Assembly (NCBI RefSeq): GCF_029168945.1
Contig: NC_083604.1
Location: 66,480,211-66,544,210, forward strand
Origin: Cannabis sativa
Lineage: Eukaryota > Streptophyta > Magnoliopsida > Rosales > Cannabaceae
Direction of reading: 5' to 3'
DNA length: 64,000 nt
Shown: positions 16,702 through 41,830 of the stretch, one piece after another
Layout: each line of letters starts with the position of its first letter
Position numbering within the stretch: the first letter of the stretch is position 1
Program-made: the position numbers and the translations under genes
The notes under the pieces: model-generated
The model's database searches: none
What the model saw: only the letters and a program-made list of their open reading frames with translations
What the model was told of the DNA's origin: nothing

Positions 16702-16757
16702 GGATGTTGAGATGATTCGCAGGCAGATGCAATGTTGGAGGATTAGGATGGGGAAGT

Positions 16758-19590: not shown

Positions 19591-19599
19591 TTTGAAATG

Positions 19600-20126: not shown

Positions 20127-20316
20127 GGGAATCTTACAAAAATATTGAGTTTTGTACAAATATTTACAATTTTATTGCCACAAGGTAAAAATTACTTATA
20201 TATTGTCTTGGGTTTTTTTTTCTTTTTATATTGAACGCTGAATATTAAGAACAATGCTTCCATTTTTTATACCTACGTACAAAACCACCACAGCAACACG
20301 AACACACTTGAAAAAA

Positions 20317-20466
20317 TAATTATTAATTCTGGTGAGATTGAACAAAAACAGTAAAATCAACGTCAAATAAATAATCATGGCAAAATAACACTTAAATAAA
20401 TAAAAAAAACAAAAGAAAAAAAAGATTAAAGAAAACTAACCATCTTTTGCAAAGCCTCGACACCAT
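20317..20466 (+). repeat. Diverged direct repeat, copy 1
   Basis: Shares blocks AATAATCATGGCAAAA and ACTAACCATCTTTTGCA in the same order with 21812-21967. Confidence 0.6.
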
Positions 20467-20767
20467 ATGCAATAACGGCTATATTTACAAGCTCAGTCTT
20501 GAAAATGAGAATAGAAAAACTACTAAAATCAATCTAAATCAGCATAAAAACAAATGTAAAACAATGAAGCGGAAATAACCACTTAGAAAACCTTAAAAGA
20601 ACTACACACCTAAAAATCATTTTGCCAATGAGCTCATCAAATGTATTTATAAGAGAATCAAAGTAAAAAATTACAAAAACAACCATAAAAAAAAAAAAGA
20701 AATATATTTATAGCCTCCATCTTCCACATCCACGGACCAACCTACCATAACAATACGAGAATACTTA

Positions 20768-21804
20768 GGGGCCAGATTGGTTTGTGATTTGAAAATTGTG
20801 TTTTCAAATACTGTAATTTTAAAATGAAAATCTGAATTTTGTGATTGAAAATAAGTTTCTGAAAATGTGATTGGTTCAATATCTGTAAACTGTTTTTAAA
20901 TTTTAAATATTGAATTTATGATTGGCACAGAATTAAAAAATATAACAATATCAGAATATGTGATTGGTTTAACTGAATTAGAAAAATATTTTAATTTTAA
21001 ACCAATGATAGTATATAATATGAGATAAGTCTATAGTACACCTCCTAAATGAGTATTTTGGTAGAACCTATCAATTTTGGCATCCAATATAATTTTTCAG
21101 TCTAATTTTTTATCTTTTATAATCATGTATATCATAATTATTTAAGATCATTTGTAAATTTCATAAAAATTTCTTATAATATATATTTATATGTATTTGA
21201 TATACACTAAATTAAACAACATTTTATTTTCTTTTAAAAAAAAATTATATTTTATTTATATATGTATAATCTGGAAAATGAGAGAATGAAGAGACAATAT
21301 CAAAAAGTAAATATTAATTATATATATTATATATGCAAATAAAATTCTCTTATTATAAATTACAATTAAATTGTATCATTTTTTATTAAAATAATTTAGT
21401 CATATAATTGTAGAATGGAGAAAAATGTAAAGATGAGAATGAAAGAAAAAATAAGTTAGGAAAATAAGAAAACAAAGAGAAAAGGAAAAAAATAATAGTC
21501 AGGAAAAAAAGAAAACAAAGAAAGAAATGCACAGTAATAGAATATATTTAAAAAAAAGTACAAGAGGAAAAAAAAGAAAAACAAAATCAAAAAAACTTAT
21601 TTTAGAGAAAAAAAAAAAAAAAGTTGTATTCAAATTCACTAAAAACGTGAATTCCTTGTTTTCAATTTTAAGGTTAAGTTTTCAATTCTGATTCAAAAAC
21701 AGTTTTTAAAAATAGAGTAACCAATCATGTTTTCTTGAGGGGCCCACAACTTTTAAGTTTTCAAAATGATAAAATAGGATTTAAATCTTAAACCAATCAG
21801 CCCC
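20768..21804. mobile_element. TIR DNA transposon, non-autonomous, 1.04 kb
   Basis: Left end GGGGCCAGATTGGTTT; reverse complement of the right end GGGGCTGATTGGTTT. Flanked by TA on both sides (20766-20767, 21805-21806). The interior is AT-rich with no reading frame. It includes a copy of the GGTGTAC...GGATGCC fold-back family (about 21035-21200). Superfamily not certain (Harbinger or Tc1/mariner-like ends). Confidence 0.6.
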
Positions 21805-21811
21805 TAGAAAA

Positions 21812-21967
21812 CAACTATTAATTTTGGCGAGATGGAGCAAGAACAGTGAAATTGACGTTAAATAAATAAATCATGGCAAAACAACAGTAAAACAATACTA
21901 AAACAAATAAAAAAAAAATGATTAAAAACAACTAACCATCTTTTGCACATCCTCAACACCAAATACT
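21812..21967 (+). repeat. Diverged direct repeat, copy 2
   Basis: Partner of 20317-20466, immediately right of the nested TIR element. Confidence 0.6.
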
Positions 21968-22213
21968 GTGTTTCTTTTAAAAAAAAATATAATGTAAGTT
22001 TTATACTGTGTAATGTGTTAAATTGTCACTGTTATTCTACTGTTGTTTTTTAGTTGTTCCACTGTTGTTTTTTAGTTGTTCCACTGTTGTTTTTAGTTAT
22101 TCTATTTTATGTTCTGTTTTTTTTAAAAAAAATATAGTATTTTTGAAAAAATTTCCGTGTAACAGTATTTTTATAAAAATTAACCCAAATTTCAGTATTT
22201 TTGTAAGTTTCCC

Positions 22214-23560
22214 TTACAAATTAGTAAAAATTACCCAAATTATGGGATTTTTTTTACCATTTACTTTTTTATGGCATTTTTAAATAAAGCCTTTGTCATA
22301 TGGGATTTTTGTTTTGTGTTCCTTTTTATGGGTTTTATGAAAGCCATATATTTGTTATATTTGGCCCAATTCCCATATTTTATTCTTTTTTTAAAAAAAA
22401 AATAAATAAAATTAAGCTACAGCTAGTGTAGCATTTGCATGGAATAGCTTAACTTTGTACTCATTGTTTCATACAGTTCAATCAATCCCATTGTCATTTC
22501 ATATTCTGAGCAAGAGGTTTTCTCTCACTGTTACTCTCTCCTAGTCTCTCTTCGTTTCCCCTTTTTTTTAGCTTAGGGTTTATTCTTTTCCTTCATATTT
22601 TTCTTGTTCTTCGTCTTCAAGCTTCGACGGTGCTGCCATTGTTGTTGTTTTTCAAGCTTCAACCGGTGCTGCCGTGGGTGGGTTATTCGGTTGTGGTCAT
22701 TTTGAAGCTCAGTTGCTTGTTTAAGTGAGGTAAGTTTTCAGTTGTTCATAATGTTTGTTGTAATGTGTTTAGTTTTAGTGATTATAGTTCGGTATTGTAA
22801 TGTTTGTTGGTTTTTTTTATTTGTTTTTCTTGATGATTTTCCATGATCGGCTGGGTTTTTTGGGTTTATTGTTGTTTTTGGGATGATCGGTTGGGTTTTT
22901 AGGTTGTGTTTGGTGTTTTGGTGTTTGTTCTTTCTAATTTTTTCAAAATGTGTTCTTATTTTCGTTGTTAATCATTGTTCTATTTAGTTTATTTTTGTTT
23001 TAAGTTTGAGTTTGTGTTGATTTTGTTGTTTTCTCTGTTAATTTTTGTTTAATCTTCATGAATTTGGTAGGTTTTTTTTTTCTGTTTTCTTTGTGTTGAA
23101 TCTGTTTTCCAGATTAGAGGATTTTTTGTTATTTTTAGTGTTTATTTTGGGTTTATACATTTGCATGCAATACAGTTTTTGAGGATGCTTATAAAATGTA
23201 ACCGGTTATTTTTGTGCAATAGATTTGACCTTTTAGGTTAATATTATTATTTGTATTTAAATTTTTATGTTTTTTTTTTTGTATTTTGATTTTTTATTTG
23301 TTGTTCTGTTTTTTTTTTTAAATTGCTTTTCTTAATATTTTTTTTTTCATTGGTTAGAGTATTTAGTGGGGGTGGTAACTGTTTTACCCCTGTTTTTGCC
23401 ACGATGTGGCAGTTTTATTTTATTTTATTTTATTTTTTGTTTTATGTGGGTTGGCAGGTACAATTTCTTAGTTATATGTATTTGGTGTTGGTTTTTAATG
23501 TGCACTTATTAACTTGTTTTGTTTTCTCTGTATTCTTTATTTAGTTTTAGGTTATATACA
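22214..23560 (+). other. Left end and 5' leader of the outer MULE
   Basis: After the AT-rich terminal region, a pyrimidine-rich leader (about 22440-22727; CTCTCACTGTTACTCTCTCC) ends at a donor GAG|GTAAGT near 22728. A T-rich intron then leads to the first coding exon at 23561. No other gene. Confidence 0.5.
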
Positions 23561-24145
23561 ATGGATAAGTCCCCTCATACAATAGTCTATATTAAGAAAA
23601 AGAAAAGGGGTGAAGTAAGTAAGGTATGTTATTAAATTTTCATGTTTCATTTTGCTTTTTGTATTTTACTGTTTTTTTTTTTTTTTGTTTATTATCTGCT
23701 ACTCAATGTTTTCAGGACATTATTCATTATGTTGATCCTAAAGTTCAACAGAAGGATTCTCAACAATCTGATTATGTTTACAAAAATTTAAAGGACCAGG
23801 TTTAAAACTCATTTCTCTTGTTTATTGGTGTTAATTCATGTTCATTTATTCCATTTTTGATTCTTTTGTTTTATTCTTGTTGTTTTTATACCTGGTTTAT
23901 AACTAATTTTAATATTGTATTTTTTATTTTGTTAACAGGTTGAGCCTGGTAATGTTGCGTTTGTGGGTGCTAAATTTGGAACTGGTTCCGAAGTTCCAGT
24001 TGATGCACCTAACAAACCAGAGGTTAAGAAATCCCGTGCTAAGAAGAAGAAGGTGAGTTTCTTAACTGGTTATGTTATTGTTGTTGTATTTTAACTGGTT
24101 TTTTTTTATTATAGAAATGTGTTTTTAATTGTTTATTGTATGTAA

Positions 24146-24153
24146 TTTAGTTT
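24146..24153. repeat. Inner MULE target-site duplication, left
   Basis: TTTAGTTT, repeated exactly at 31703-31710. Confidence 0.85.
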
Positions 24154-24255
24154 GGGAAATTTGATAATCTATGCTAAAAAATTAAACATGGTGTTTAATT
24201 ATCCCAAATTATAACACATAAAAAAAATATACCTATGTTTCAATTGTCTTCCAAA
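24154..24255 (+). repeat. Inner MULE left terminal inverted repeat
   Basis: Pairs with the reverse complement of about 31600-31702. Confidence 0.8.
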
Positions 24256-24801
24256 AATACCCCCATCATTTCAATTCCCCCCAATCTCTCTAACTTCCTT
24301 CTCTCTCCTGTCTCTCTTCCTTTCTCGGTTCAAACTCAGCCAACCCAACCACCGCACCATTGTCTCCCTCTCTCTCCTCACCACCGCACCATTATCACCA
24401 CCGCTCGACCCAGACGACAGACGAACCTAGCCGACCCACACGACCCACGAACCCAGTCGACCCACACCACCCACGAACCCAGTCGACTCACGAACAGTCG
24501 AACCCAACGCACGCCGTCCACCCACACGACCCACACGAACGGCGAACCCAACGCACGCAGTCGACCCACCTCATTGCAGTCGACCCACACGACCCACACG
24601 AGACCCACTCCGAGGAGAAATCGTCCCAAGCACAATCCACGAACCAGGTATGGGCTAAACTTAACTTTTTTTTTTTGCAATTTATCATATACATTGTGCA
24701 TCTGTGATATAACTGAAATGTATTTGTTTGAATTTATCAATTTTAGAGTTTGGGGAAGAAACTGAGTTTAGGGAGATAGATTTTGGGGTTTTTTTTGATT
24801 T
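24256..24801 (+). other. Inner MULE leader with GACCCA-rich repeats
   Basis: After a pyrimidine-rich leader, 24405-24640 is an imperfect repeat tract built on CCCAGTCGACCCACAC-like units, GC-rich in contrast with its surroundings. The complementary frames are open only because of the repeat. The non-autonomous MULE at 47077 has the same AGTCGACCCAC unit. Likely 5' UTR of the DUF1985-Ulp1 gene; a donor-like CAG|GTATGG lies near 24648. Confidence 0.5.
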
Positions 24802-25193
24802 TGTGCGATATTGTGCGACGTGTAAGCGATATTTGTGCGATTAAGGATACAAAATAAGAACTTTTTCGTTGTGGGGTGTCTGTGCGATTTCTGTGCGATT
24901 ATGTGCGATAATTGACTGCTGCATCTACATTGTTGAATTTGTGCGACTTTTGTCGATTTCTTGTGCGACTTTGTGCGATTTTATAGCTATTGTGTTTGCA
25001 ATTATTATATTTGTGCGAGTTTTGGCGATGCCTTGTGCGATTGTGTGCGATTTATATTCAAATATGTTGCCAACCAGGATTATTTCTGGTGTGCGATTAA
25101 TGTGCGATTAATGTGCGAGTTTGTGCGATGTTGTATGTTATTCATTGGCTGTTATCGATTTCTATGCAATTTCTATGCGACGTACGTGCGATT
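24802..25193 (+). repeat. TGTGCGAT motif array 1 (upstream of the DUF1985 exon)
   Basis: More than 15 copies of GCGA within TGTGCGAT/TATGCGAC-like units, many separated by 10 or 11 bp (for example GCGATTAATGT twice in tandem near 25085-25106). The motif is on the plus strand, sense to the following gene, and stops just before the acceptor at 25219. Confidence 0.85.
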
Positions 25194-26188
25194 TATAATC
25201 TTCCTGTTTGTATTTGCAGATGGCTCCAGAACTCATTCTCCCCTTGGCTGAGCATTTTCCTGGGCGTATCACTTACCGCGGAAATGGGTACTTTGCTTCT
25301 ATTAAAGCAAAGTTTGAAGCCTTTAACCTGACCGAGAGGGTGAAGGAAACTCCTTTTGGAGTTTTTTGGAATGCGAATGAACTGAAATTCTCCGGGGTGA
25401 TTGTGCATCAACTACTGTTGAGGAAAATGAAAGTGACTGAGGTGAAGAATGATGAAGTGTGGTTTTACGTGGGTAAAACCGAGGCCAGATTTGGAAGGTC
25501 TGAGTTTGGATTGATCACGGGACTGAAGATGAGCGGTGGCCCCTCGACTGAAGAATTGACTACACTATGTGAGTCTGATCGGATATTGCGGGACTACCTT
25601 AATAATGCCAAACGGGTCACTTTCAAAACCCTTTGGCTAGCTTTTGAGGCGTGCGATGTGGCCGACGACGTGTACAAGCTGGGGCTGTGTGCATTTGTTG
25701 AAGGAGTGCTACTATCAAGGGCTGAGGGTGTTTATATATGGTCGGATATGCTGAAGTTAGTAGAAAACGAGGAGAAGTTCTTCGAATATCCGTGGGGCCT
25801 TCTTTCATATCAGAAGTTGTTGTCATCCACAGCCAAAAGTATGACTGACCTGAGGAAGAACTACCTTGATAAATCTACTAAGGATAAGAAGAAAGGGAAG
25901 AAGGAGAAAAAAATTACTCAACCAGAGGCGAAGTACAATGTCTACGGATATGCACCGGCGCTACAATACTGGGCCTTTGAGGTGATGCAAGATTTGGGGA
26001 AGAAGCACGGGCAGTGCAGAGGGACTAGATTCCCTCGAATGTTGAATTGGAGCACCCCCAACACAGTTACGAAACATGATGTCAAGCAACCTGATGTCGC
26101 TACCCTATTCGAGAAAAGGGTATGTCAATCTGACTTTCTTTGTTGTTTTGGTATTTCTTTTGCTAAACTGTGCTTTACAACGATTTTA

Positions 26189-26509
26189 TGCGATTTTAAT
26201 GCGATTTTTGTGCGATTTAAACATGTTTTTCATTTGCCTCTGTTTCATTTTGCGAGTTTATGCGATGTCAATGCGATTTTTGTGCGAGTTAGACCTTTTT
26301 CATTTGCAACTGTTTTATTTTTGCGAGTTTATGTGATTTTCGTGCGATTATTGTGCGATTTGACTATGCTGAATATGACTCTGCTATTTTCTGCGATGTT
26401 ATGCGACATTTTTGCGATATTTGTGCGACTTTAATATGCTTTTTGTGTTTTAAACAAACCTGATCTTTTCTGCGATTTTATGCGACGTGTGTGCGATATT
26501 TGTGCGATA
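26189..26509 (+). repeat. TGTGCGAT motif array 2 (intron 1)
   Basis: Fills intron 1 of the DUF1985-Ulp1 gene. Consecutive spacings near 26190-26225 are 10, 11 and 11 bp (GCGATTTTAT, GCGATTTTAAT, GCGATTTTTGT). Confidence 0.88.
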
Positions 26510-27544
26510 ATTAATATATAATTTTTTCCAGATGGTTGTTCTTCAAATTCTGTATCCTAGGAATTGGGAGGTGGACTATTGGAAGAGCAATTGTGAGGGT
26601 GAGGTCCCCACGGTGGAAATGGGGTTGGATGAGGTCGAAGAAACGCAAGTCGGGGCGCAAGATTCGACCGCATTCCAGACCCAAGCCGAACGGGTGGCGG
26701 ATTATGTGAAAAAGTCCAAAATTATTTCACCATCCCCACCCAAAGAAGCACCAGACGCCTCCACATCTGCCACCGTGCCCCCAACGCCTGCCACTGTGCC
26801 CCCAAGCTCTGCTCCAGCCAACGACTCCAACTACCTCTTGTTGGCTAAGAGGTTGGAGAAGGTAGAAGCGCAACAAGTTGCGATTCTGACTGCGCAGACT
26901 GAGATGAAGGCTGACTTCAAGAGAAGTCAGAAAGAGATGAAGAATCTTATCATGGATCAAATTGCGACCGTGATAAGTTTGTTACAGAAGCAGCCTTCGG
27001 AGCCGACACAACCATCAGGGCCGGCACAGCAATCAGACCCCACATATCCATCAGACACGGCAGAGCCATTACAGACGGTACATCCATCACCGCCGACATA
27101 TGATGATGATGATGATGTCTACCCAGAAGATTGGCAACCTGACGCATGTGACGTTCCTTCTACTCCTGCAAACGCCATTGTCATTTCGCTGGGTGATACT
27201 GAATCTCAGGATGTGGAAGAGTTGCAGGGGCCACCAGATGGAGTGGAGTTCTGTAGGCTTAGGCGAAAGCGCAAGCCGGTTTTCTTGAATGACTACACTG
27301 CTGGGAAGAAGAAACAACGACATGGGCCCGTGGTAGTAGACACCCTGAAACCGGCGGACGCCCGGCTGTTAAAATTTTTCCAGAAGTGGATCACTTATGC
27401 TAGGGACAATGGCCGTCCTAGGGATGTTCACACTGGCGAAGCCACTAGATCGTGGTTCGTGAAGTTGATGGTGCTGAACGAATGGCTCGAAGATGATGTA
27501 AGTTATTTCGTAACAGAATTAATTTATTGTGTTTTTTATTGTTT

Positions 27545-27780
27545 GTGCGACTTATATGCGACTTACATGCGATTTATATGCGATTTATACTCACTCTATG
27601 TAAAATCTGGTTTATGCGACTTTTATGCGATTTATGTGCGATGTGCTTGCGATTATAAACTGATTTATGATGGTTCGCGATTACTGTGCGATTATTGTGC
27701 GATTGTTGTGCGATTTTTTGAAACAATTTTGGTAATTTGCTGTGCGATTTCCTGCGATTTGTTGTGCGACTTTTATGCGA
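27545..27780 (+). repeat. TGTGCGAT motif array 3 (intron 2)
   Basis: Runs of exact 11 bp spacing: GCGACTTATAT, GCGACTTACAT, GCGATTTATAT, and further on GCGATTACTGT, GCGATTATTGT, GCGATTGTTGT. Confined between the donor at 27498 and the acceptor at 27812. Confidence 0.9.
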
Positions 27781-28768
27781 CTTCTTTCTAACTGTTTTCA
27801 TTTGGAACACAGCAAATTGATGCCATGGCGCACTTGTTGAGAAGAAGACGGACCCTGTACCCAGAAGTCTACACCCGAAAAGGTGTAGTTTTGGACACAT
27901 CTGCTCCACAGTTCTTTTCCATGTTTTGGAATATGTGTGAGGGTGACAGGAGCAAGATGAAATGGGATGAGGGCGTCATGAGTTACGTGCAGGGGATATC
28001 GCACAGATACTTGCCATGTTGGGAGAAGCAGGAGTACATATACTTTGTATTGCACCTTCCCAAAGAGCGCCACTGGGTGGCAGTTGAGGTGGATATCGAG
28101 AACTGGGAGATCATTGTATATGATTCTGATATCGGTGCCACCGTTGAGGCAGCCATGGAGTCATATTTGAAGCCTTAGAGCGAGCTCTTTGCAAATCTAA
28201 TTCGAGATAGCGGTTATTTCCAATACAACAATTATGTACATCCGGTGGAGTTGGGCGATCTCAGTCAGCTCCTACCCCTCCATTATAGACGAGCTACCTC
28301 GGAGGTTGTACCACAAACGAAGAGCAGGTGAATCTCTTTTTCTTTTGTATATTTTGAGTAATTTATTTAATTTTGCACTCCATTATGAATTACTTAACTT
28401 AATTGTTGCTAATATTTAGTTTTTTTTTAGTGGCAATTGTGGAATGTATGCCATGGAGCACATTGAGCACTTGATGTTGGATCGGTCGTTGGAGCATGTG
28501 CATGATGATAACATGCTCACCTTTAGACATAGGTGGTGTGTGGACCTATTTTACCAGAACTTAACGTGGTAGTTTTTTGTAGGTTTTTGCAATGTTAATC
28601 TTGTACACATAAACTCCCCTTTTGTAATTGTATTATAATCTCACCAAATTTATATATAACAAGTAAATTTAAAGCTATTTAAATTGTTGCTTGTATCAAT
28701 TTATTTCTTTTTTAAATTTTTGATAAATACTGTGAAAAGATGACTTCTTGATAAATTATTTCGCTAGG

Positions 28769-29049
28769 AATCGCATTAAAATCGCACATACATCGCCCAT
28801 AATATCGCCAAAATACACAAACTAACAAATCTAGATTAGTTAACATCGCATAAACATCGCACCATAATCGCACAATGTCGCCAAAAATACAGAACCAAAG
28901 CAAACTGAAAAACAGGTTCCTGTCAGTTAACATCGCATAAAAATCGCACAATAATCGCAGGATATCGCCAAAAAATACAAAACAAACTAAAAACTAGCTC
29001 CTGTCAGTTACAAATCGCACAGTAATCGCATAATGTCGCCTAAAAATCG
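28769..29049 (-). repeat. TGTGCGAT motif array 4 (between the convergent genes)
   Basis: The same motif in reverse orientation (plus strand TCGCACA / TCGCATA), with 11 bp steps such as TCGCATTAAAA, TCGCACATACA and TCGCATAAACA. It lies just 3' of the minus-strand transposase, on its sense strand. Confidence 0.85.
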
Positions 29050-29146
29050 GTAAACAAACCAAAAAATTATTAATCTAGGAGAAAAAAGCACAATATCCAA
29101 CAACCAGCAATACAACACATATTCATTTAAATATTGGAGAAATGGT

Positions 29147-30840
29147 TCAAACTCGAGCTTTGCATGTAGCTCTGTTGTGCCCTGAACCGTGACATAGCGA
29201 ACAATGACGAGGTTCCACTACCACCTGACCACTAGACGGTCGACGCTTCGTCGGTCTTCTACCTGCATTGCTCTTCCTAGGCCGACCTACTGGTTTTTTC
29301 TCCACTGGTACCCCGATTCTTATGTTCTTGATATGTTCCGGTAGTACCCACTCATCCTCCTCGCCAACAATATTAATTGTGGCATCGTAGGTTTTCTTCC
29401 ACGTTTCTTTAGTGTAATATGGAGAGCAAAGTGTGTACACGCTCACATTCTGACTAACTGCTGCGGCACATGACGACAATACTTAAATCCCTTCCTACAA
29501 GCATCGAGTGACCAGAAAACAGTACTTGAACCGGTTATCCTCGCTGACAATGTCAGTAATAGTGCCTGGATTCTTCTGTTCCAGCATGTAGAAGTAACCA
29601 TATAATTTCGTATAAGATTCTGCTGGAGTACCCCTCTTGTACATAACTGCCTTCTCTCTACATCTCCAAGCTTTCTCATAACTCATCTTGATGCCATATT
29701 CATCAAACATATCCCTCTGTATGTCTTTTGCTTTGTAGTTAGATCCATCAGATGTGTACTTGTTCTTAATAATGTGACCAATGACCCACGGTGCTGCTTG
29801 CCGGTGATCAGAATGTCTAGAATCCAAGTTACATGTGTGTTCGTTGTGAAACACAGTAACCTCAAACATGTCACAAAGTGCCTTCTTCTTCCCCCTTAAT
29901 CTCCATTTACAATTTTCATCCTTACAAGTAACGTAAAACACATCAGTGCCAGACTTACTTACCATCCACTCAAAATTATTTTTCAGTGCATACCTACCAA
30001 CTACATTCTTCAATTCTTCCTTGTTTTTGTACAACTTGCCAAGATATATCTCCCCTGAAGGCGTACCACTAAGAGATGTTGTATACACATTATTTTCCTC
30101 TATGTCTTCCCTTGTCCACACAAGAGGTTTGAATTTAGTAGAAACTTCAAATTCAGATACAGGAGCACTATCAGAAGGACCTGGCCGACTGCTACTAGTT
30201 CCTGGTGTTTGGCGATTCTCACTACGGGGGGGTCTTCTTTGTCGCTCTACTTGGTTGCTTGGAGTTAGTTCCATCCTCAGGGGAGGTACATCTGTAGCCA
30301 CATCATCATCCACACCCAAATCAACCACAGGATCATTGTTGTAAAAGGGAGCATCGAACTCATCTGAATGATGAAATTCGATACCCACTCTCTCATCATC
30401 TACATTAGTGCCAACTTGCTCGTCCAAACCAACCCCCAGATCAGTTTCTGGGACAAAGGTCCCAACAACACTTCTAGGGGTTACATTTCGGGGAGTCTGC
30501 TCCAAATTCACATTCTTCTTCACCTTTGTCACAAATAGTGGCAACAAGTTGTCCACACTCATTTTTGCCTTCATGCTCAAGAACACTCGTAGTTGACTAT
30601 CTTTCACTAAAACCTCAGGTGGAAACTTAGTGCCTTTCATGTACATGTAAAGAACTTCTAACTTCAATTCATACACCAAGGGGTCCACCTCCAACTCTTC
30701 ATGCAAAACTTCACGCAACTTTTTCAGTGTACACTCAACGTCCAATATCAATGTCTTACTTTTTGAGGAATCAAATACCCAGTTGAAACCCTCCACAGTC
30801 CAAACGCCATCATACAGCACAGGCACAAATACAGATGAAT
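29147..30840 (-). pseudogene. Inner MULE transposase, catalytic core deleted
   Basis: The minus strand encodes the MURA N-terminal half: VPVLYDGVWTVEGF, an acidic linker, then the FAR1/MuDR-type DNA-binding region (VYTTSLSGTPSGEIYLGKLY; CKDENCKWRLRGKKK; FHNEHTC) and KNPGTITDIV. At about 29505 a one-base loss shifts the frame to the one carrying FWSLDACRKGFKYCRHV. Sequence then jumps, near 29475, directly to the C-terminus (YTLCSPYYTKETWKKTY; VGRPRKSN; zinc knuckle CSLCHGSGHNRATC). The whole DDE catalytic domain and the SWIM finger are missing. The start is taken at an acceptor (GGGACAG at 30841-30847); motif array 5 lies upstream as a 5' intron or leader. It cannot encode a working transposase. 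Confidence 0.88.
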
Positions 30841-30891
30841 CTGTCCCACAGAAAAATACAAAGAAAAACACAGAAAAAATCAGCATACAAT

Positions 30892-31207
30892 ATCGCACAT
30901 ACATCGCACAAGGTACTACAGAGGTCGCACAACGTCGCCTAATACAACAACAATATGTTGAAGTATGTCGTCGCACAATAATCGCACAGACAAGGGACAA
31001 TATCGCATAAAGTCGCACAAGCACACATACATGACAAAATCGCATAATGCTGCACAACAAGTCGCACACAAATCGCCTAACATCAGAAATCGCACATAAT
31101 CGCATAACCATCGTACAAGGTCGCCAAAATTAATCATGTCATCCCTAACCTCAGATTTCTCATGAAATCGCACAAAGAATCGTATAAAGTCGCATAAAAT
31201 CGCACAA
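30892..31207 (-). repeat. TGTGCGAT motif array 5 (upstream of the transposase exon)
   Basis: Reverse-oriented motif copies at mostly 10-12 bp steps (TCGCACATACA, TCGCACAATAA, TCGCATAACCA), sense to the transposase gene. Confidence 0.85.
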
Positions 31208-31439
31208 AAATGAAAAAACCCAGAAAACCACAGACTGTTCGGACCACACTCTACCTCTATTTTAAGGACACAAATGACACAAATTACAACTAACAACGTT
31301 CAGATCTATACAATATAACAAAAAACAACACTATTTACTAAGAAAAACACTTACCCATTCCTTTGTTGAGTGTGGTTGACCTTGAGGTTGAAAATGGTGA
31401 AGGTGTAGGCTGGCCGAGACGTTCAGTTGGTGGTGGTGG

Positions 31440-31590
31440 TGGTGGCAGCCGGCGACAGTAGGCAGTGATAGAGAGAGAGAGAGAGAGAGAGAGCAAATGA
31501 GAAAGAGAGAGAAAGTGAAAGAGAGAGAGTGCGAGTAGAGAGAGAGATCAAACGAGAGGGAAAGAGAGAGAAGGGGAGGCTGTTAGATGG
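31440..31590 (-). repeat. GA-rich simple sequence in the inner MULE right leader
   Basis: (GA)n runs at about 31471-31493 with GAGAGAAAGAG repeats after, in the expected 5' leader of the minus-strand transposase gene. Confidence 0.7.
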
Positions 31591-31599
31591 GGAGGGCAT

Positions 31600-31702
31600 T
31601 TTGGGGTTCCCATGACAAAATAGGCATATTTACACAATGTGTAATTTTTTGGGTCAAAATAACACCATGTGTTATTTTGAAGCATAAAAGATCAAATTTC
31701 CC
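31600..31702 (-). repeat. Inner MULE right terminal inverted repeat
   Basis: Pairs with 24154-24255; followed directly by TTTAGTTT. Confidence 0.8.
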
Positions 31703-31710
31703 TTTAGTTT
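31703..31710. repeat. Inner MULE target-site duplication, right
   Basis: TTTAGTTT, identical to 24146-24153. Confidence 0.85.
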
Positions 31711-34700
31711 ATATACTTTTTATAACTGGTTTTTTTCTTTTAAAAATGTGTTTATAAATGTTTAATTAATGTAATTTAGTTATTATATTATTTATAACTG
31801 GTTTTTTCTTTAAGAATTGGGTTTTCAAATGTTTATATTATGTAATTGAGTTTTTATAGTCTCTTTTAACCGGTTTCTTTTGTTAGTTTTTTTAACATAT
31901 TTTGTGTTTCATTTGTTGTTTTATTATTATAACCGGTTTCTAAATTTCTTTTTGAGCTTTTTAAAAGTGTTGTTTTTGTATGTTTTTTTAACCGGTTTCT
32001 TTTTTGTTTTTCAAGGTTAATGTTGATCCTTCTGATGGCGATTTTGTTCAACATGTTCAATCTGGAACTAGTTCTAAAGTTCCAGTTGAAAAAGAGATTC
32101 AGCCCTCTGTCAGGGAAACTCGTGGCCGGAAAAAAAATGTGTTCATATGTTTATAATTTTGTTCTTTGTTACTGTTTGTGAATGTTGTTTTTCTGATGTA
32201 TATTTATCTTTTTTGTTTTCTGTTTTTTTCAGGCCACAGTGGCTGGTTGTGATCTTCCCAATCCGTCGGTACGTCGTACAACACGTTCTGGCGTTAAATC
32301 TGTTGCGTCGAAGGGCCCTAGTCCTTCGATAGCTGAAGAGTCCGTTAAAAAATCCACTAGTTTTTCGAATGTGGTAAGTGCTTTAAGTTTTTCATTTTAC
32401 ATATATGTTTTGTTTTTATTTTTAATGTAATTTTTATTTATGGAACCAGTTATTTTATTTATCATGTGCTTGTTGTTGTTGTCACTGGCTAAATCTTATT
32501 TTATAACTGGTTTTTTAACAGGATGTTTACTTGAAGATGAAAACGGAGCACCGGTTCACAAGTAAGCTCTAGATTTGGAATAACCCGTGGGTTATTGAGG
32601 AGATCAATGCAAATCTTACTCCTTCTCAAAAGGCGTTATTTTTTACGACGCCTTTTTAGCAATTTTTGAAGATGGGCATTGTTAAGTGGCACATTGCCCT
32701 GCCTCACCTTGCTTTAGTGAGGGAGGTTCATCAAGAGAGGGAGGATGTAGAAAAGTGGTTCTTAATCCGGGACAGAGTTGTCCGTTTCGGTTTGGAGGAG
32801 TTTGTCTTGATAGCGGGGTTAAGTCCGGAAGGGTCATTTGACTTGAACGATTTTAAACAGAAGATGTCGTTCAAGAAGAAGATGTTTCCTGATTTGACTA
32901 TTAAAGTCATTTAAGAACAAGTTAGAGCAAGGTTTTTGGCGGGAGAATTTGATGATGATGATGTTGACGCTGTGAAGATGGCGATTGTTTATTTGTTGAG
33001 TCACTATTTATATGGGTATGAGAACAGTAAGAGAGTCGACAATGAGTTATTTGGTTTTGTGGATGGCGATTTGTCTGAGCTAAGGAATATCGCATTTGGT
33101 AAACTGCTGTGGGATAGGACTTTCCACTACATGAATTTTGCCTTCAAGGACGGTGATAATATATATTACAAGATTGAGAAGGCCAAGGAAGAAAAGGATA
33201 AGTTTTATTCTTTTAAATTCCAAGGGTTTCCATTTACTTTCCTAATTTGGTTGGTCGAGATACTACCAAGCCTGTCTCCTAATTACTGCAAGAGGATTGC
33301 CAATACGTATCCTCGAATGTTGAATTGGGAGAGTTCATATAAGAAAAAAATCGGTGGATATTCAAAACTTGTTTATGAGGTTTTTAATAATTCTGAGGTA
33401 CCTTTCAATTATTATAACTGGTTTTTTTTTTTAAAAAAAAAAAAATAGTGTATTCATAACTAGTTTTTAATATGTTTGATTTCTTTCCAATTTTTTAGGC
33501 CACTGTGAAGAATTTTTATCCTGTTGGCCGTGAGCTAAGCTGCCTTGCAAAACCTCAAATTTGAACTGGTTTATCTTCTAAAGAAACCTCGAGGTTTCGA
33601 TGGGAAGGTATGCCTTTTTTATGCATTCTTTTACTTTTTGGTTGTGTTTTTACAGTTTGTTTTTTTATTTAGTTTCTTATTTTTTTTCTTATATGTTTTT
33701 TTGATGTTTGTTATGTATTATTGTTTGTTTTCAGTTTTCAAATTTGGAGAAGGCTTTGGTCTGTATTCAAGATGACCAAAAGAAAATTTTATTGAGTATT
33801 AAAAATTTAAAGGATGAGTTTAATATTAAATTTGATGAAGTCATTGAATTATTGAAGAGCAAGAAATGGTCATCTGTGCCCAAAGATTGTGAGGAGAAGG
33901 TTGAAGATTCTTGCTCTAGGAATCTTGATGTTGGTGGGAATGATAATGAGTTTTCCGATCCGCCGTCACCCGAGGTATTTTTTCTTTTAGTTTGTAGTTT
34001 TTCTGTTTTTATAACCAATTATTTTTTATTTTCTATGGTCTTTTATGTTTCCTGTTTTTTTGTGTTTTATAACTGGTTATTTTTTTTGCAATTTCTGTTT
34101 ATTTTATTCTTTTCCTGTTTAGAAACCGGTTATGACTATGTTTTTTGATCTATCTTTGTAGGTTGTTTCAAAATCCAATCTTTCTGAATATGATGATGAT
34201 ATAGGTGAGCTGCAATTGTCACTCGTTCGGGAAGATAAGGTTGTATGTTTGTTTCTTTGTTATAATGGATGTGTTGATTACCAACTGGTTTTTTTTAGAT
34301 TGTAAGTTTAATTGATTCGTGTTTTTATTCCAAGTTCACTCTGGATTAGGTGAGGGGAGGGATGACGGCGGTGTGTTTTCGTATGAAACGATTACAGTCG
34401 ACCAATCCATTTTGGATTTGGTTGATAGACTCACTCGGGCATATTCTTCCCCACTTAGTGCAAAGAATGAGCAATGGGATTTGGTGTCAATTCCTGAGTC
34501 TGCATCCCCTACTGTGGAAGATGAGGTTGAGGTTCTATATGTAATGCCTTTGCAATCTAGTGTTGCTGTCAAGAGACAAGCAAAACCTAGATTGCATTGT
34601 AGATCTCCTTTTGTCAATGAGTTTGGTTCTTCCGAACCAAAAATTCAGAATAAGAAGGATAAGGAGTCATCTAGTGAATTAGCTTTTGACCCTAAGGTGT

Positions 34701-35760
34701 TGTTTCCTTTTGTTAAAGAGATTGGGATGAACACTGGCACCGAAGATTGCGAGGGATACGTTAAGTGGATCAAAGGTGCTAGGCTATTGAAGAAGAAGTA
34801 TGTTTTTTATTGTTATGTTGTTATTTTTGTTTTTAATAGTTGCTGAGTTTTATTTTTTAACTGGTTTTATTTTTTCATTTTGGATTTTTTTCTTTGTGAT
34901 TTCAGGAACAATGAAAAAATAGCTGGCGACATTGATCCTCCCTTCGATTTTAGCATAGCTCAGATTGATGACAAGTCTTGGTTTGTGATTTTACAGACTC
35001 GTGGTGAAGAATTGACTGATCTAGTATTTAACTGGTTATTTTTTCTTCAGTCTGTTTTATTTTTCTTAATTTCTTTGCTTTTTTTCAATTTTTAACTGGT
35101 TATTATTTTTTATTTATTGTGTGCAGCATCTGAATGTGGTACTCTATTATCTTAAGAGCATCTTATACGATGCTAGTGTTAATAAGAGAGTGGTGACGAC
35201 ATGCTCGTATTTTGATGCAACTATTAAGGGAGTGTATGCTGAATTTATAAAGGCAAAACGTGATCCGAGTGTCATCAGGTATGACAACATGGTCACCGAT
35301 TACATTCTGGGGCAATATAACTTTTGCTTCCAGCCTTGGATCGGTGTTGACGATGTTGTCGGTCCGTGTCATGTCGGTGTTCAACGACATTGGATATTTC
35401 TTCACTTCAGCATTTTAAAGAGGAAGATCTTCGTATTCAATTCCATGAAGAATACAAAGACGAATCAAAAGAAGATCTTGCCTGATCTCCTTGCGTACTG
35501 TGAGTTACTACCATACTTCCTTAATTTCTTAAATTTTTATGATGGTAGGAACGACATTAGTTTGGAGTCAGGCCCTTATGCTGTGCCGAAGGATACTCCT
35601 ATTGCATATGAGTTTGTGGACAAGCTCCCCACACAAAGCAACAGGTAAATAACTGGTTATTTTTAGTCCTATGACTTCTGTGATTCTTTATTTGTTTATT
35701 TTTTCTGCTTAAATAATTGGTTATGTATTGTTATTTATTTTTGTTTTGTTTTTCAGTGAT
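31711..35760 (+). repeat. AACYGGTT motif cluster in introns of the outer DUF1985-Ulp1 gene
   Basis: About 16 copies of TAAC(C/T)GGTT(A/T)TTT lie in the introns, for example near 31723, 31795, 31870, 31932, 31990, 32505, 33417, 34068, 34125, 34283, 34858, 35031, 35093 and 35648. Exons are almost free of it. More copies occur at 23200, 24063 and 24090 left of the inner MULE. Confidence 0.8.
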
Positions 35761-36125
35761 TGTGGTGTATTTGTGATTAAGTATGCTGATCTATTCATCC
35801 GGGGCAAGATTAATGAGATTCCTCCTAATATGGATGAGATGATTACGCACTATCGGGATGACCTCGCTGTGACTGTGTATATCTGTGCCCAGAAAAAGAT
35901 TAACGAAGGATATTCGACTGAAGATAGGCCGAAGGGAAAGAAGTCCAAGAAGAAGAAGTTTGATTCTTGTTAAATATTTGTATTGTTTTCTGGACAGATA
36001 CAATGTTTGTAGTTTTGTTTAGTGTTTTTTTAAAAAAAAAAAAATTTGGAACAATACATTATGTTATGTTAATATTTTCTATGTTAGGTTGACAATATAT
36101 GGAATCAATTTTTATATGTTTATGT

Positions 36126-37641
36126 TGTTGGGTTTTATGCCCTAAATAAAACTCATTTCATATAATCAGATTTACTTATTAATAAAGATCAGAAATAACA
36201 TTTTATGTTGCATGGTTCACATGATTTATTTCATGATTATATGTATATAATGTATGGATTCTTTTTAAGTCCAGAACATATGAATTTGTTAAGATTATAG
36301 TGTTGTCAACACAGTGGAATATAATCTTAATTATATGTTCAAAAGTTTATTCCCTGATTTGTCAGAACACTTGATTTAGACTGACATGGTATAATCAGCG
36401 ATAGGTATTCTTACACCTTGGAAAAGTGTTATGTCCTTTCCAGGACATTGGCAAAGTTTACCAGTATCGGATGTATGGAGTATACATCGGAAGGGACCGA
36501 TATTGAACTTTGATTAGATATATTAAAACGTACCGTAATATCTATTCAATTCAATATCACCTGTTGATCCTAGATCAAATGATCTTAATCCTAATATGGT
36601 TAGGTTCAATCTCAAGAGTGTTACTCGTGTTCTTTGATTTGTTAGTTAAGCCTACTTTTGGGTCAGGGTGATACGTACATTTTGGGAACACGGTAATGCA
36701 ATTGAGTGGGAGCGCTAACATAAATATGGAATCTATAGCTTCTATTTGGCAAATAGAAAGTAAAGGATGATTTCCTTCGAGCTTAACCAAACGAAGATAA
36801 ATGGTGGAGATCTCATTTCACTTAGCTGAAATATCATTTATACAGGGTTAAGTGTTTTAAGGATAAAATACATTGTAGGGTGTTACGGTAATTTAATCCC
36901 TTTACAGTGTAAATCATCTATATAGAGGATCATTGATCACATTAGGGTTATAACAATGGATAACTAATGACGTGTCTATATCGTGGAACATATAGAGCGT
37001 TCTATATGACTGAGAGTGCAATTCCAAGTTCTAAGTGTGGATTCAATGAGGAATAAATAAGTTAGGGAATTTACTTGGTAAATTCGGTTCAACTTATTGG
37101 AAGCTCGGTTATATAGACCCATGGTCCCCATACTAGTTGAGACCATACTGCTTGTAAGACTCAGTTAATTGATTTTAATCAATCAATTATAATTCTAAAA
37201 GTTAGACTATGTCTACTTTATGAATTCTCACTAAGTAAGGATGAAATCGTAAATAAAAGGGTTTCTAGGTTTAATTATTAATTGAGAGACTTTGCATGTC
37301 TAATTAATAATTATTTTAAATGACAATATTATTTAATAATCTATTTTAGTTATTAAATAATTAGTTTTGGCATTTAAATGATTAGAATTGGAAAAGTGGC
37401 ATTTTTGGAGAAATAGAAATAAAATTGAGGAAACTGCAAAATCCAAGTGAGGCCCATGAAACTCCATGGCCGGCCACCTCTTTGATTTTCCCATTTATTA
37501 TTTTCAATTTTAATTGCCATGTAATTGCTAATCTGAACGGAAGGAGTCATAATATTCCGCTGCACCCACTTTAAGGTTTTCTAACTTTATATGTGTTTAT
37601 TTTCATTGTTTTAGAATTCATATTAGGTTGTTAATCCAACA
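36126..37641 (+). mobile_element. Solo LTR, 1.5 kb
   Basis: Begins TGTTGGGTTTTATGCCC and ends GTTGTTAATCCAACA, giving the TGTTGG/CCAACA inverted termini of a plant copia LTR. No second copy and no internal retrotransposon sequence follow, so it is solo. Flanks TATGT (36121-36125) and TACAT (37642-37646) agree at three of five positions, a weak TSD. It lies between the 3' ends of the two convergent outer MULE genes. Confidence 0.75.
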
Positions 37642-38268
37642 TACATGATAGTAAATAGATCTTGGTAAAATAATTTCCAGCATATGTATACTTTTAGTTT
37701 TTTCTGATTTTTCTTTTTGTAATACATATTTTAATGGTTTTTACATTTTCCTTGTGAAGTGTTGTTGTTACATTGTGTTTTGTTTGTATAGTTTTTTGTT
37801 TAATTTTAACCGGTTTTTTCATGTTTACTTAGATTGCCCAATGTTATTTGTATATTTTATCGGTTTATTTTCCAGTTTGAAAGGTCGTTGTTTAATGTTG
37901 ATTTTTTTTAACCGGTTATTTGTTTAGTTATCTTATATATTTTTTTTTGTTATTAAGTTGTTTGTATTGTATATATTATATAGAACCTTTTTTTTATAGA
38001 ACATGTATTTTTGGTTCATGTTTAAATATAATCAGTTTCATTTTCGTTGTTTTCTTTTGTTTTGGTGCATTTTGAATATACCCGGTTTTTTTGTTGTTTT
38101 TTTTTACAAGGCAATTCTATATTATGAAAATTTTCATTTTCATTCAAAACCAATTATGTTTGAAGATATAGTTCATGATCAACAAATATTGAAACGATTA
38201 TTGGAACATACAAAATCAAATATATATTTTTTTTATTGTAAATGTCTCTTTGTATTCAATAAAACTGG
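37642..38268. other. 3' flank of the outer transposase, AACYGGTT-rich
   Basis: T-rich DNA with motif copies near 37808, 37908 and 38262 and variants at 37858 and 38080. No gene. Confidence 0.6.
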
Positions 38269-40852
38269 TTATTCTTGTTGTGTCTTTGCTTTCTTGCGCC
38301 TTGGTTGTTTTGGTTCTTGTTGCTTTGGTGGTAGAGCTGGATTAGTGCATGTTTTTCTGTTGTGCCCTGTCTTCTTGCAACGTCCACACTTTAGTTGTAC
38401 CTTTGGCTCTCCTTTTGAACTTATTCTTCTCCTCCTAGGTCTCCCTGCTCTCTTTTTTGTGTTTGGGGGTAGGACTATCATTTCCAAGCTCTCAGGCAGT
38501 GTCCACTCACTTTCATTTGGTAATGGGTTCACTGTTGTGTCATATGTTGCTTTCATTTCGTCAGTTTTGTAGTAGTCCGCAACATAGTCGTAAACTCGCA
38601 ATCCTCGTTTCGAGAATACAGCTATTGCATGAGCACATGGGATTTCATCTTGCTGGAACCGGTTACATTCACATGTTTTGTCTAGTAAATTGACTAGGAA
38701 TTTCCCTTTCTCTAGCACATTCACTTGGTGGAGTATAGTTGTGACTGGTGTAACCTGTTATTTTAAACAGAAAAAATTATTTTATAACCGGTTATTTTAT
38801 ACAGCTATTCAATTTTTTTAATGTGTACTGTCTGTATATATCTATAAGTTTAGTTGTTTACCTCATATTTTCTTGCTTGAATAAAGTTGTCTCTGAGTAT
38901 TTTTTCTTTCACTGTTGAAACTTTGGTGAATGTTCCATGTGCTTCGTTGCCGTTTGTCCAAACCCATTTTTGTACCAAACTTCGAAGACTCTCCATCATT
39001 GTAGTGATAGGCAGTGTTCTTGTAGCAAGTATTGCTAAATTTATCGACTCAGCTATGTTGGATGTCATCATTGTGTACCTTCTGGTCGGGCAGTGGCATC
39101 TACTCCAATATTTGTATCCTATTCTCTGAAGATAAGGTCTGATTCTGCTGTCTATTTTGTCGAGTTCTGACATGTATCCTTCAAATGATTTCGTGTTGTA
39201 TGTCTTGGCGGCTTTGACAAAGTTTAATGTAAGATCTTCCCCGTGTATTCTAAAATTGACCTTAATATTGTTTAGCAAGTGGAATATGCATGCTCCACGG
39301 AATATGTTTGGGTAGACAATTGTTACTGCTTTCTCTATGCTTTTGTGCTGGTCTGAGATGATTGTCATGCCTGCGAGTGTATGTCTGTTTTAACCGATTT
39401 TTTTGTTACTTTTTTTTTTTGAAACCGGTTATTTATGTTAAATAAGTCTAACAAACAATAGGAAAACTATTACAATAAAAATGATGTATTTTCTTTATAT
39501 TTATGCTTGAACCAGTTTCTTACCTTCTCTTTCTCCGAATGTTTCTCTTAGCTTGTGGAAGAACCACTCCCATGATGAATCATTCTCCGAGTCTCTTATT
39601 CCGAATGCCAATATGAATATGTGGTTATTAGCATCCATTGTTGATGTTGTAAACAACGTCCCTCCGTATGTTGTTTTCAAGAATGTGCCATCTACCACAA
39701 TCACCGGTCTGCAATGAATCCATCCTCTAATTGAGTTTGACAGTGCTAGGAACATGTACTTGAACCGGTTCTTATTGTCTGTTATCAATTCGGTTACGGT
39801 GCCTGGATTTGCTTTTTTTAGCATATGAAGGTACATTGGGAGTTATTGGTATGAGTCTTCTGGCTTTCCTCTTGACAATTCTAGAGCCTTCTCTCTTGTT
39901 CTCCAAGCCTTTTGATATCCCATCGAGACCCCAAACTCGTGTAGCAAGTCCTTCATGATGTCATTCGATGCATGCTTCCTGTTTATTGAGTCGTACTTCT
40001 TCTTTACTATTTGAGCAATAGTATTATATGTTGCTTGCCTGTGATCTTCCACTATGACATCCAATGAGAAGGTGTGGTTGTTGACATATTTTCTAATCTT
40101 GAATGTTTGTGTTTGTTTCAACTTTGAAGTGCGCATAAATCATTTACAATTTTCGTCAACACATGTAACCATGTATTCCCTCGGCTCGGACCTCTTCGTT
40201 CTGATTTGAAAGTTCTTTATCATTGCATAGAATCCGATTGCCGTTTTCAGTATGTTCTTGTCACTGGTCCTTCTTCGATCTCAAGCACCATGTAATCTGT
40301 GATTATCTCTATTTCCTCATCCCTTCTCTTTTTTGTTGCTTCATTGGATTGCTCTATTATAAAGTCTGCAACTTGTTCAACCATGGCAAACATGTTGGGG
40401 GCAATTGTATACTGACAATAATCATGATTTGAATCTTGTCCTTCAATATCAGATTGTTGGTTGAATGGTTCGTCGTGTATTTGTAGAACCAGTTCCTCCA
40501 CTGTCTTGGTTTGCTCTTGTATTGGTTGGTCTGAAGACTGATTTTCCACTATTTGTATAGCCCTTTCTTCTGTAGTTGTGATGCATAGTGGAGAATCAGT
40601 TACTCCAGCTTGTGATTTTCTCAGCTCAATGTAGAACTTGAGAGAATTGTCACTCAGTAGCTTCATCGATGTTGTCCCCGGTGATATCTGGTAGGATATG
40701 TCTATGTTGCTTCTGTTGCAGTTGATCTCTGTTTTTATCAGCTCCATCAAGTTTGCTAGTGATGAATTGGTTGGAATTAGAATTCATGTCATTGTGTAGT
40801 CATCATAATTTGTATTTTCCCTCCACTGACCCCCATATTTGATGACACACAT
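38269..40852 (-). pseudogene. Outer MULE MURA-type transposase, 3 exons, broken
   Basis: Minus-strand exons about 40852-39524, 39370-38862 and 38754-38269. It opens with MCVIKYGGQW. Disabling changes are TGA at 40784-40786, a frameshift near 40250, TGA at 40140-40142 (Trp expected in the CXXXXCXW motif) and TAA at 39843-39845. Domain order is canonical: FAR1/MuDR-like DNA-binding region (YMVTCVDENCK; FKIRKYVNNHTFSLDV), KKANPGTVTELI, then MULE DDE transposase with VIVVDGTFLKTTYGG (Asp 1), MTIISDQHKSI (Asp 2) and TSNIAESIN (Glu). Next are a SWIM zinc finger CECNRFQQDEIPCAH and a C-terminal zinc knuckle CGRCKKTGHNRKTC. All three catalytic residues remain. It would cut and join the element's TIRs in the nucleus if expressed intact. 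Confidence 0.92.
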
Positions 40853-41830
40853 GATTTATTCCATACCTGCAATTTTAGGAAAAAAGTAATATCAGAATAT
40901 TATTGAAATGTTTTGTTTGGAACCAGTTATTTTTAAAAAATTATAGGTGTTATTGTTTTGGTTTTAGGTTTTTTTGTTTTTTGTTTTTTATTTGTCATTT
41001 ATGTTTTTGATAATTATTTTGCATTTTCAAAGAAAAATTCTTTTTAAAATTTAAGTGTAATTTTTTTTAACTGGTTTTTTTTTTCTTTTAATTTTTTAAT
41101 TGTATGTTTTGCTATATTTTTTAATATTTTTCAAGTTTTTTAACCGGTTTTTTTTTTTTCTGTTATGTTTTATTATTTGTGACTTTCTTTATTTTTTAAC
41201 TATTTTATGCAAAAGTAATATTATATTATTATATTTTTGTATTTAGAACCGGTTATTTTTAAATTGTATTTAGAGAATCAATATTATAAGTGAGTTTTTT
41301 AACTAGTTTTTAAGTTTTAACTGATTTGTTTTATGTTATATATATTGTTGTATTTGTTTTAATTTTGTTTTCTTGTAGCCTTGTTAAATGTAATGTTTTG
41401 TTGGAATCTAATTTTATTTTTGTATTTGGAACTGGTTTCATTTAATTTTTATGTTTTATTGTGTAAGTTAGTTTTTTAACTGGTTATTTTTTAAAAAATT
41501 ATAGGTGTTTTAAGTTTTTAACTGTTTTTTTTTTGTTTATTTTCTAGTTTTAAGTGTTATTGTTTTGTTTGTTTTGGTAAAAATTATTTTTAAAATTATT
41601 TTTTTTAATTGGTTTTTATTTTTTGATTGTATGTTTTGTTATATGTTTTTAACTATTTTTCACGTTTTTGATTGTTTTTTTAACCGGTTTTTTTTCCTGT
41701 TATGTTTTGTTATATGTGACTCTCATTATTTTTTTCTCTGTTTTTAACTGGTTATTTTGGTTCCGGTATATATTTGTTTTGCATGTGTGTTTTTGATTTT
41801 GTATATTGTTTTAACCGGTTATTTTTTTTT
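40853..41830 (+). repeat. AACYGGTT motif cluster upstream of the outer transposase
   Basis: About ten copies of AAC(C/T)GGTT with a T-rich right flank, near 41068, 41140, 41248, 41430, 41478, 41684, 41746 and 41813, plus one-base variants. The T-rich side points the same way on the plus strand as in the Ulp1 gene, so relative to the transposase gene it is antisense. Confidence 0.75.

What the first reader, a model, noticed from the sequence alone, without database searches (positions are those of the whole stretch)
24802..31207. Family-specific TGTGCGAT arrays spaced at helical pitch inside a DUF1985-Ulp1 MULE
Seen: five arrays (24802-25193, 26189-26509, 27545-27780, 28769-29049, 30892-31207) of TGTGCGATTTA-like units fill the introns, leaders and intergenic space of the inner MULE. 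Successive GCGA cores are mostly 10 or 11 bp apart (often exactly 11), close to one turn of DNA. Exons lack them. Known: DUF1985-containing VANC proteins of VANDAL MULEs counteract silencing by binding element-specific short motifs whose density and helical spacing matter. Inference: the element's own DUF1985-Ulp1 protein binds this motif. I know of no description of this particular motif.
Basis: partly seen in the sequence, partly recalled or inferred. Interest (0 to 1): 0.93.

Follow-up and report, generated by a model that had tools for sequence, protein, structure and literature searches.

The report
Four-site tag arrays in cannabis transposon
A jumping gene of Cannabis carries dozens of short DNA tags, often in groups of four with one tag per turn of the double helix, which look like docking sites for its own protein that may keep the plant from silencing it.

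Summary
The inner MULE (24154-31702, Cannabis sativa) carries TGTGCGAT-like units in its non-coding parts: 43 TGTGCGA there, 1 in its exons, 3 in the rest of the window. GCGA cores lie 10-11 bp apart. In 21 related copies, 278 runs hold four cores, one holds five, none more. Spacers of different arrays are unrelated (one copy). Core bases change 2-15 times less often than spacers among copies. Genome-wide, the commonest tetrad spacing occurs 519 times, its backward control 0 times. On the stretch whose matches are listed it marks 14 of 14 mapped elements of this family, 2 of 10 of a sister family and 0 of 37 other DUF1985 loci. The element's DUF1985 domain is homologous to VANC21, solved bound to DNA. 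Best reading: a VANC-type anti-silencing system whose protein reads four phased sites. That kind is known from Arabidopsis; the CpG-containing motif, the four-site rule and real terminal repeats distinguish this case. Binding and demethylation were not tested. The main prior paper (Sasaki et al. 2022) could not be read.

The parts
24154..31702 (+). inner MULE copy, 7,549 bp, nested in an outer MULE; eight other copies with both ends found are 8.2-9.5 kb
   Evidence: ends GGGAAATTTGAT/ATCAAATTTCCC and TSD
24146..24153 (.). left 8-bp target site duplication TTTAGTTT
   Evidence: exact match to the right flank
31703..31710 (.). right 8-bp target site duplication TTTAGTTT
24154..24303 (+). left terminal inverted repeat, imperfect (105 of 151 alignment columns identical)
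31553..31702 (-). right terminal inverted repeat
24802..25193 (+). array 1, leader upstream of the DUF1985-Ulp1 start codon, GCGA units in sense
25220..26119 (+). exon 1 of the DUF1985-Ulp1 gene; DUF1985 domain, homologous to VANC21 of a DNA-bound crystal structure
   Evidence: PF09331 E 8.7e-21
26189..26509 (+). array 2 in intron 1; four-core groups at about 70-80 bp
26532..27497 (+). exon 2: heptad-like helix and basic segments
   Evidence: open frame, splice sites; heptad count
27545..27780 (+). array 3 in intron 2; four tetrads
27813..28327 (+). exon 3: Ulp1/C48 protease domain; premature stop at 28176-28178 in this copy
   Evidence: PF02902 E 2.1e-7
28431..28572 (+). exon 4, end of the Ulp1 domain
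28769..29049 (-). array 4 between the convergent genes, on the strand of MURA
29150..30841 (-). MURA-type transposase remnant: DBD_Tnp_Mut kept, no match to the catalytic MULE domain in this copy
   Evidence: complete in L025
30892..31207 (-). array 5 in the MURA leader; the least regular array
32660..32911 (+). outer MULE, DUF1985 domain (E 2.7e-7, 31.1 bits, below Pfam's cut-off 35.1)
35070..35645 (+). outer MULE, Ulp1/C48 domain
   Evidence: PF02902 E 1.4e-4, 22.3 bits against cut-off 20.7
38853..39842 (-). outer MULE, transposase domain pieces (PF10551)
31724..41820 (.). 34 AACYGGTT/AACCAGTT sites of the outer MULE's downstream part (plus 4 in 15000-24155); near-palindromic motif, not at helical pitch

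Best explanation
The arrays are binding platforms for the element's own DUF1985-Ulp1 protein, a VANC homologue. The protein reads GCGA cores in the major groove. Four cores 10-11 bp apart put four sites on one face of the helix over about 43 bp, so the natural site is a tetrad filled cooperatively, perhaps by four protein heads joined by the helix that follows the DUF1985 domain. Many tetrads in leaders, introns and the intergenic space recruit enough protein to remove silencing from this family. Shown here: the motif, its helical spacing, the four-site limit, its conservation against mutation, its near restriction to one family, and homology of the protein to a DNA-bound VANC. Inferred: binding by this protein, groove, cooperativity, four-fold assembly and anti-silencing.
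Against: No binding or methylation data. The fold model is of middling confidence (mean pLDDT 64.8), its Foldseek alignment to 9lnj has TM 0.50 and rmsd 12.4, and a first model from a thinner alignment (48.6) found nothing. Tetrads are not universal: of 540 clusters (cores linked across at most one missing turn), 278 are perfect, 65 are single cores and 14 span five turns; array 5 has 31 singles, 45 pairs and 10 tetrads; subfamily copy L042 has one tetrad. The copies are related, so their counts are not independent. Low core divergence could be helped by array homogenisation. In array 2 the few non-motif CpGs change as little as motif CpGs (2.4%), though not in arrays 3 and 4 (22% and 14%; 70-125 cells each). 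All arrays are in the sense of the adjoining gene, which a DNA-only reading does not require. Two of 10 sister-family elements also carry a tetrad, and 5 of 21 tetrad loci could not be assigned. CpG change in exons (2.0-2.7%) against arrays does not show demethylation.
Confidence: 0.82

Rival explanations
1. Neutral minisatellite: an 11-bp unit and a 70-bp higher-order unit spread by slippage and unequal crossing-over, with no binding function.
For: Local tandem duplication is real: intron 1 is 339-343 bp in 6 copies, 409-422 bp in 14 and 379 in one, the main difference being about one tetrad unit, and the leader is 0.96-1.08 or 1.9-2.25 kb (distances). Some spacers within array 4 are alike.
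Against: Runs stop at four; spacers differ between arrays; cores change far less than spacers and flanks; tetrads persist across subfamilies at dS about 0.5 with other spacers in intron 1.
Confidence: 0.07
2. RNA-level element: UGUGCGAU repeats act in introns and UTRs, for example on splicing or nuclear fate of the element's transcripts.
For: All five arrays lie in the sense of the adjoining gene, with almost no antisense units; units are U-rich, as plant introns tend to be (recalled).
Against: Spacing matches B-DNA pitch, which RNA would not need; array 4 lies beyond both coding ends; the encoded protein has a DNA-bound homologue. Sense bias can follow from the need for U-rich introns.
Confidence: 0.06
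3. The arrays bind the MURA transposase or a host factor, or order nucleosomes, rather than the DUF1985 protein.
For: MURA keeps a DNA-binding domain; 10-bp phased motifs can influence nucleosomes (recalled).
Against: No GCGA lies inside either terminal inverted repeat of the window copy, where MURA is expected to bind (expectation recalled); the motif differs between DUF1985 families in one genome, as known for VANC targets.
Confidence: 0.05

Closest known systems
VANC21 / VANDAL21 (Hiun) of Arabidopsis thaliana (PMC5735166 and PMC10398659, passages only; PDB 9lnj, title only)
   Same: DUF1985 protein encoded by a MULE; short family-specific motif as tandem repeats in introns, intergenic and terminal non-coding DNA; homologous domain.
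   Different: Motif YAGTATTAY without CpG against (T)GCGA(T) with CpG; VANDALs have degenerate TIRs, this element has imperfect TIRs of about 110-150 bp; here runs stop at four, for which I saw no statement in the passages read.
VANC6 / VANDAL6 and Ulp1-bearing KIU (Kaonashi) VANDALs (PMC5735166 and review PMC13317346, passages only)
   Same: Different motif per family; KIU-type VANC genes carry an Ulp1 domain, as here.
   Different: Motifs AGTTGTCC/AGTTGTAC; other host lineage; described as non-TIR MULEs.
Eudicot VANC diversification and helical periodicity of motifs (Sasaki et al. 2022, EMBO J, PMC9016345; not held, abstract recalled only)
   Same: Sequence, density and helical periodicity as determinants of specificity (recalled).
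   Different: Whether tetrads, CpG-core motifs or Cannabis were covered could not be checked.

Membership tests
VANC-type anti-silencing system | protein homologous to VANC (DUF1985) DNA-bound domain | tested here: met
VANC-type anti-silencing system | gene lies in a Mutator-like element with MURA transposase | tested here: met
   TIR, 8-bp TSD; PF10551 and PF03108 in L025, PF03108 in the window copy
VANC-type anti-silencing system | family-specific short motif, tandemly repeated, in non-coding parts | tested here: met
   2 of 10 sister-family elements share a tetrad
VANC-type anti-silencing system | motifs at helical periodicity (criterion recalled from an abstract) | tested here: met
   pair distances peak at 10-11, 21-22, 32 bp
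VANC-type anti-silencing system | the protein binds the motif | not testable with these tools
   needs EMSA, DAP-seq or ChIP-seq
VANC-type anti-silencing system | expression removes DNA methylation from the family in trans | not testable with these tools
   needs transgene and bisulfite sequencing
VANDAL (non-TIR MULE) proper | degenerate or absent terminal inverted repeats | tested here: not met
   63-77% identical TIRs over 109-155 columns in 9 of 9 copies with both ends found; only the outer 150 bp were compared
KIU-type VANC genes | Ulp1/C48 domain downstream of DUF1985 in the same gene | tested here: met
   PF02902 E 3.1e-17 on the L025 protein, 2.1e-7 on window exon 3

The most novel reading that the evidence does not exclude
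A four-headed VANC: the protein acts as a tetramer (or four cooperating copies) that only locks onto four CpG-containing cores on one helical face. Because each core contains the CpG that the host methylates, binding and methylation would exclude each other, making each tetrad a bistable, methylation-gated switch. This would be a counting rule for epigenetic escape, not just a motif.
Probability: 0.27. Interest if true: 0.85.

Novelty: new variant of a known kind. Interest (0 to 1): 0.63.

Why it matters
VANC systems show how a transposon can lift silencing from itself with little harm to its host, but how their motif arrays are read is, as far as I could see, open. A natural family with a four-site rule, a CpG core, dozens of copies (40 of 134 candidates scored, 31 at 94-100% identity in exon 1), at least one copy with both genes open, and relatives in the same genome that lack the motif makes the questions 'how many sites, what phase, does methylation block binding' directly testable. 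It also extends the case to Cannabis, a crop, and to MULEs with real terminal repeats. The outer MULE gives a second DUF1985-Ulp1 element with another motif and another spacing in the same window.

Tried and rejected
Simple slippage was tested through run lengths and spacer homology and rejected. A first fold model (10 sequences) was too poor and matched nothing; a second (25 sequences) matched VANC21. Decay of CpG as a sign of methylation was inconclusive. The sister family (P0007, 51% identical to window exon 1) has an exact tetrad near 2 of 10 elements, in both cases just past an exon-2 match and in its sense, the place of array 3. I could not read those introns, so I cannot say whether that family has a variant of its own. 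A pattern built from one of these sites matched only itself. Papers: no Cannabis VANC paper, no VANC21 structure paper and no text of Sasaki 2022 appeared among the listed results (listings are capped at 5-20 papers); look-ups: not held. The (11,11,11) genome count did not complete. Limits: one search scored 40 of 134 candidates; I fetched 10 kb around 20 of the 40 and 6.5 kb around three of 88-89% identity. I placed the minus-strand stretches badly, so array 5 could be read in only 10 of 21 copies; arrays 1-4 in 19, 21, 21 and 19. L024 and L039 lack exon 4. The left end failed the strict search in L027, L030 and L036; L030's was set by hand. Only the first 100 of 519 tetrad places are listed, so family tallies cover C1 and C2 up to 60.11 Mb. 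The 29 'other DUF1985' loci come from the 150 scored of 1,690 candidates and may include some P0007-type loci. One unassigned tetrad (C2:9889261) lies 10 kb from a P0007 match, outside the 8-kb limit used.
Full report
WHERE IT IS. The window is 64 kb of contig C4 (66480211-66544210) of a 770-Mb assembly. Protein P0002, named Cannabis sativa LOC115695232, lies on a contig of 82,824,063 bp, exactly the length of C4; P0004 and P0005 match the lengths of C3 and C5 likewise. So the plant is Cannabis sativa. The inner element spans 24154-31702. It has imperfect terminal inverted repeats (105 of 151 columns identical) and an exact 8-bp target duplication TTTAGTTT. Of 9 copies with both ends found, 6 (this one included) have an exact 8-bp duplication, one an exact 9-bp one, one an 8-bp one with a mismatch, and one none.

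GENES. On + there is a four-exon gene, 25220-28572, of 840 codons plus stop. Exon 1 holds DUF1985 (E 8.7e-21) and exon 3 an Ulp1/C48 domain (E 2.1e-7). In this copy a stop codon interrupts the Ulp1 part, and the MURA transposase gene on - shows no match to the catalytic domain. Of 18 other copies with all four exons, three have the DUF1985-Ulp1 frame open to the end: L022 (its acceptor before exon 2 reads CTG), L025, and L027 (the middle of exon 2 reads in another frame). L025 also has an open MURA of 808 aa with MULE, DBD and SWIM domains.

THE ARRAYS. TGTGCGA occurs 43 times in the element's 3.3 kb of non-coding DNA, once in 4.2 kb of exons and 3 times in the rest of the window. Across 21 copies (20 fetched plus this one; arrays 1-5 readable in 19, 21, 21, 19 and 10), TGCGA in sense runs at 14.6, 40.3, 45.8, 19.1 and 14.8 per kb in arrays 1-5, at 0-2.3 per kb in exons and 0 in intron 3; antisense in the arrays is 0-0.6 per kb. 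All five arrays point in the sense of the adjoining gene.

FOURS. Core-to-core distances peak at 10-11, 21-22 and 32 bp. Runs of cores 9-12 bp apart hold 1, 2, 3, 4 or 5 cores 153, 122, 84, 278 and 1 times; a geometric model with the same mean predicts about 99 runs of five to ten. Counting each distinct sequence once gives 60, 62, 47, 126 and 1, where 51 of five or more would be expected. The one run of five is in the window copy. Allowing missing cores, 360 of 540 clusters span exactly four turns and 14 span five; 65 are single cores. The common spacing is 10, 11, 11 bp (130 of 278). The first unit differs from the other three in its flank (T before GCGA in 60% of 126 distinct tetrads, against 88-96%), so the tetrad has a direction. 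Of 192 successive pairs of full tetrads, 140 start 59-97 bp apart. Array 5 is the exception, with 31 singles, 45 pairs and 10 tetrads.

NOT JUST A MINISATELLITE. In L025, spacers of different arrays are unrelated (median z between -0.4 and 0.9), although some neighbours within array 4 are alike. Among the copies, in arrays 2-4, core bases differ from the majority in 0.3% (G), 1.5% (C), 2.0% (G) and 0.3% (A) of cells, spacers in 4.7%, flanks in 2.7-10%. Motif CpGs change in 1.3-2.3% of cells, non-CpG C and G of these arrays in 7-9%; the few other CpGs there change in 2.4%, 22% and 14% (arrays 2, 3, 4; 70-125 cells each), exonic CpGs outside GCGA in 2.0-2.7%. The higher rate of the core's C and G than of its outer bases fits occasional CpG decay, but the exonic comparison gives no clear sign of methylation, so this does not prove demethylation. 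In three copies whose exon 1 is 88-89% identical, dN/dS is 0.05-0.13 at dS 0.42-0.57. Those copies have 27 runs of four (9, 1 and 17) and none longer, even where intron 1 has other spacers. One of them, L043, is a mosaic: exon 1 at 88%, exons 2-3 at 96-98%.

GENOME-WIDE. The 10-11-11 tetrad has 519 exact matches; the same pattern read backwards has none. The first 100 matches, all that are listed, form 21 loci on C1 and C2. In that stretch 14 of 14 mapped elements of this family have a tetrad within 8 kb, as do 2 of 10 of the P0007 sister family, 0 of 8 of the P0021 family and 0 of 29 other high-scoring DUF1985 loci (positions). Five of the 21 loci remain unassigned; a search with exon 3, which scored 40 of 117 candidates, lists none of the five. 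One of them (C1:22.42 Mb) carries a tetrad identical to one in intron 1 of L025, so it may be a copy that the searches did not score. Another DUF1985 family read directly (L044, 2 kb) has no GCGA in 631 non-coding bp but ten GTTGTT in sense (exon limits by eye).

MECHANISM. Steps shown: motif, phase, limit of four, conservation, near restriction to one family, homology of the reader protein. Steps inferred: the protein binds the tetrads; four sites act together; this lifts silencing. From PMC5735166 and PMC10398659 (passages read): VANC21 binds YAGTATTAY in non-coding parts of VANDAL21, VANC6 targets carry other motifs, targets form tandem repeats, and RdDM acts on the same regions. A review (PMC13317346, passages) says that Ulp1-carrying VANDALs recognise their own motifs in the same way and that the precise function of Ulp1 there is unknown.

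KNOWN OR NEW. The kind is known. New in what I could check: the GCGA motif with a CpG in its core, the limit of four, real terminal repeats, and a Cannabis family. Sasaki et al. 2022 was not available; from memory its abstract already names helical periodicity, so that aspect is not claimed as new.

OUTER MULE. The outer element also has DUF1985, Ulp1 and MULE transposase domains but a different motif, AACYGGTT: 38 of the window's 43 places lie in 15000-24155 plus 31707-42000, with no helical peak in their distances. The two nested elements thus appear to use different addresses.

Noticed in passing
23200-24100 and 31724-41820: The outer MULE (DUF1985, Ulp1, transposase) has its own enriched near-palindromic motif AACYGGTT, mostly in non-coding parts, sparse and without helical spacing.
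   Followed up: partly
L044 1-2000 (C7:57292346-57294345): A third DUF1985 family has sense-oriented GTTGTT: 10 sense and 1 antisense in 631 non-coding bp, 1 and 1 in exons, resembling the start of VANC6's AGTTGTCC/AGTTGTAC.
   Followed up: partly
L021-L040 against window 24154-26531: The leader with array 1 is 0.96-1.08 or 1.9-2.25 kb among copies; intron 1 is mostly 339-343 or 409-422 bp, about one tetrad unit apart.
   Followed up: partly
L043: Mosaic element: exon 1 and intron 1 of a diverged subfamily joined to exons 2-3 close to the main family, suggesting recombination.
   Followed up: no
own genome, PF09331: 1,690 first-look candidates for DUF1985, 150 scored and all over the cut-off, in several score groups: Cannabis holds a large set of possible VANC genes.
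   Followed up: partly
window 28761: A fifth in-phase core in array 4, absent from the majority of copies, makes the only run of five among 21 copies.
   Followed up: partly
C1:26895270 and C2:15802195: The two sister-family (P0007) tetrads both lie just past an exon-2 match in its sense, the place of array 3 here.
   Followed up: partly
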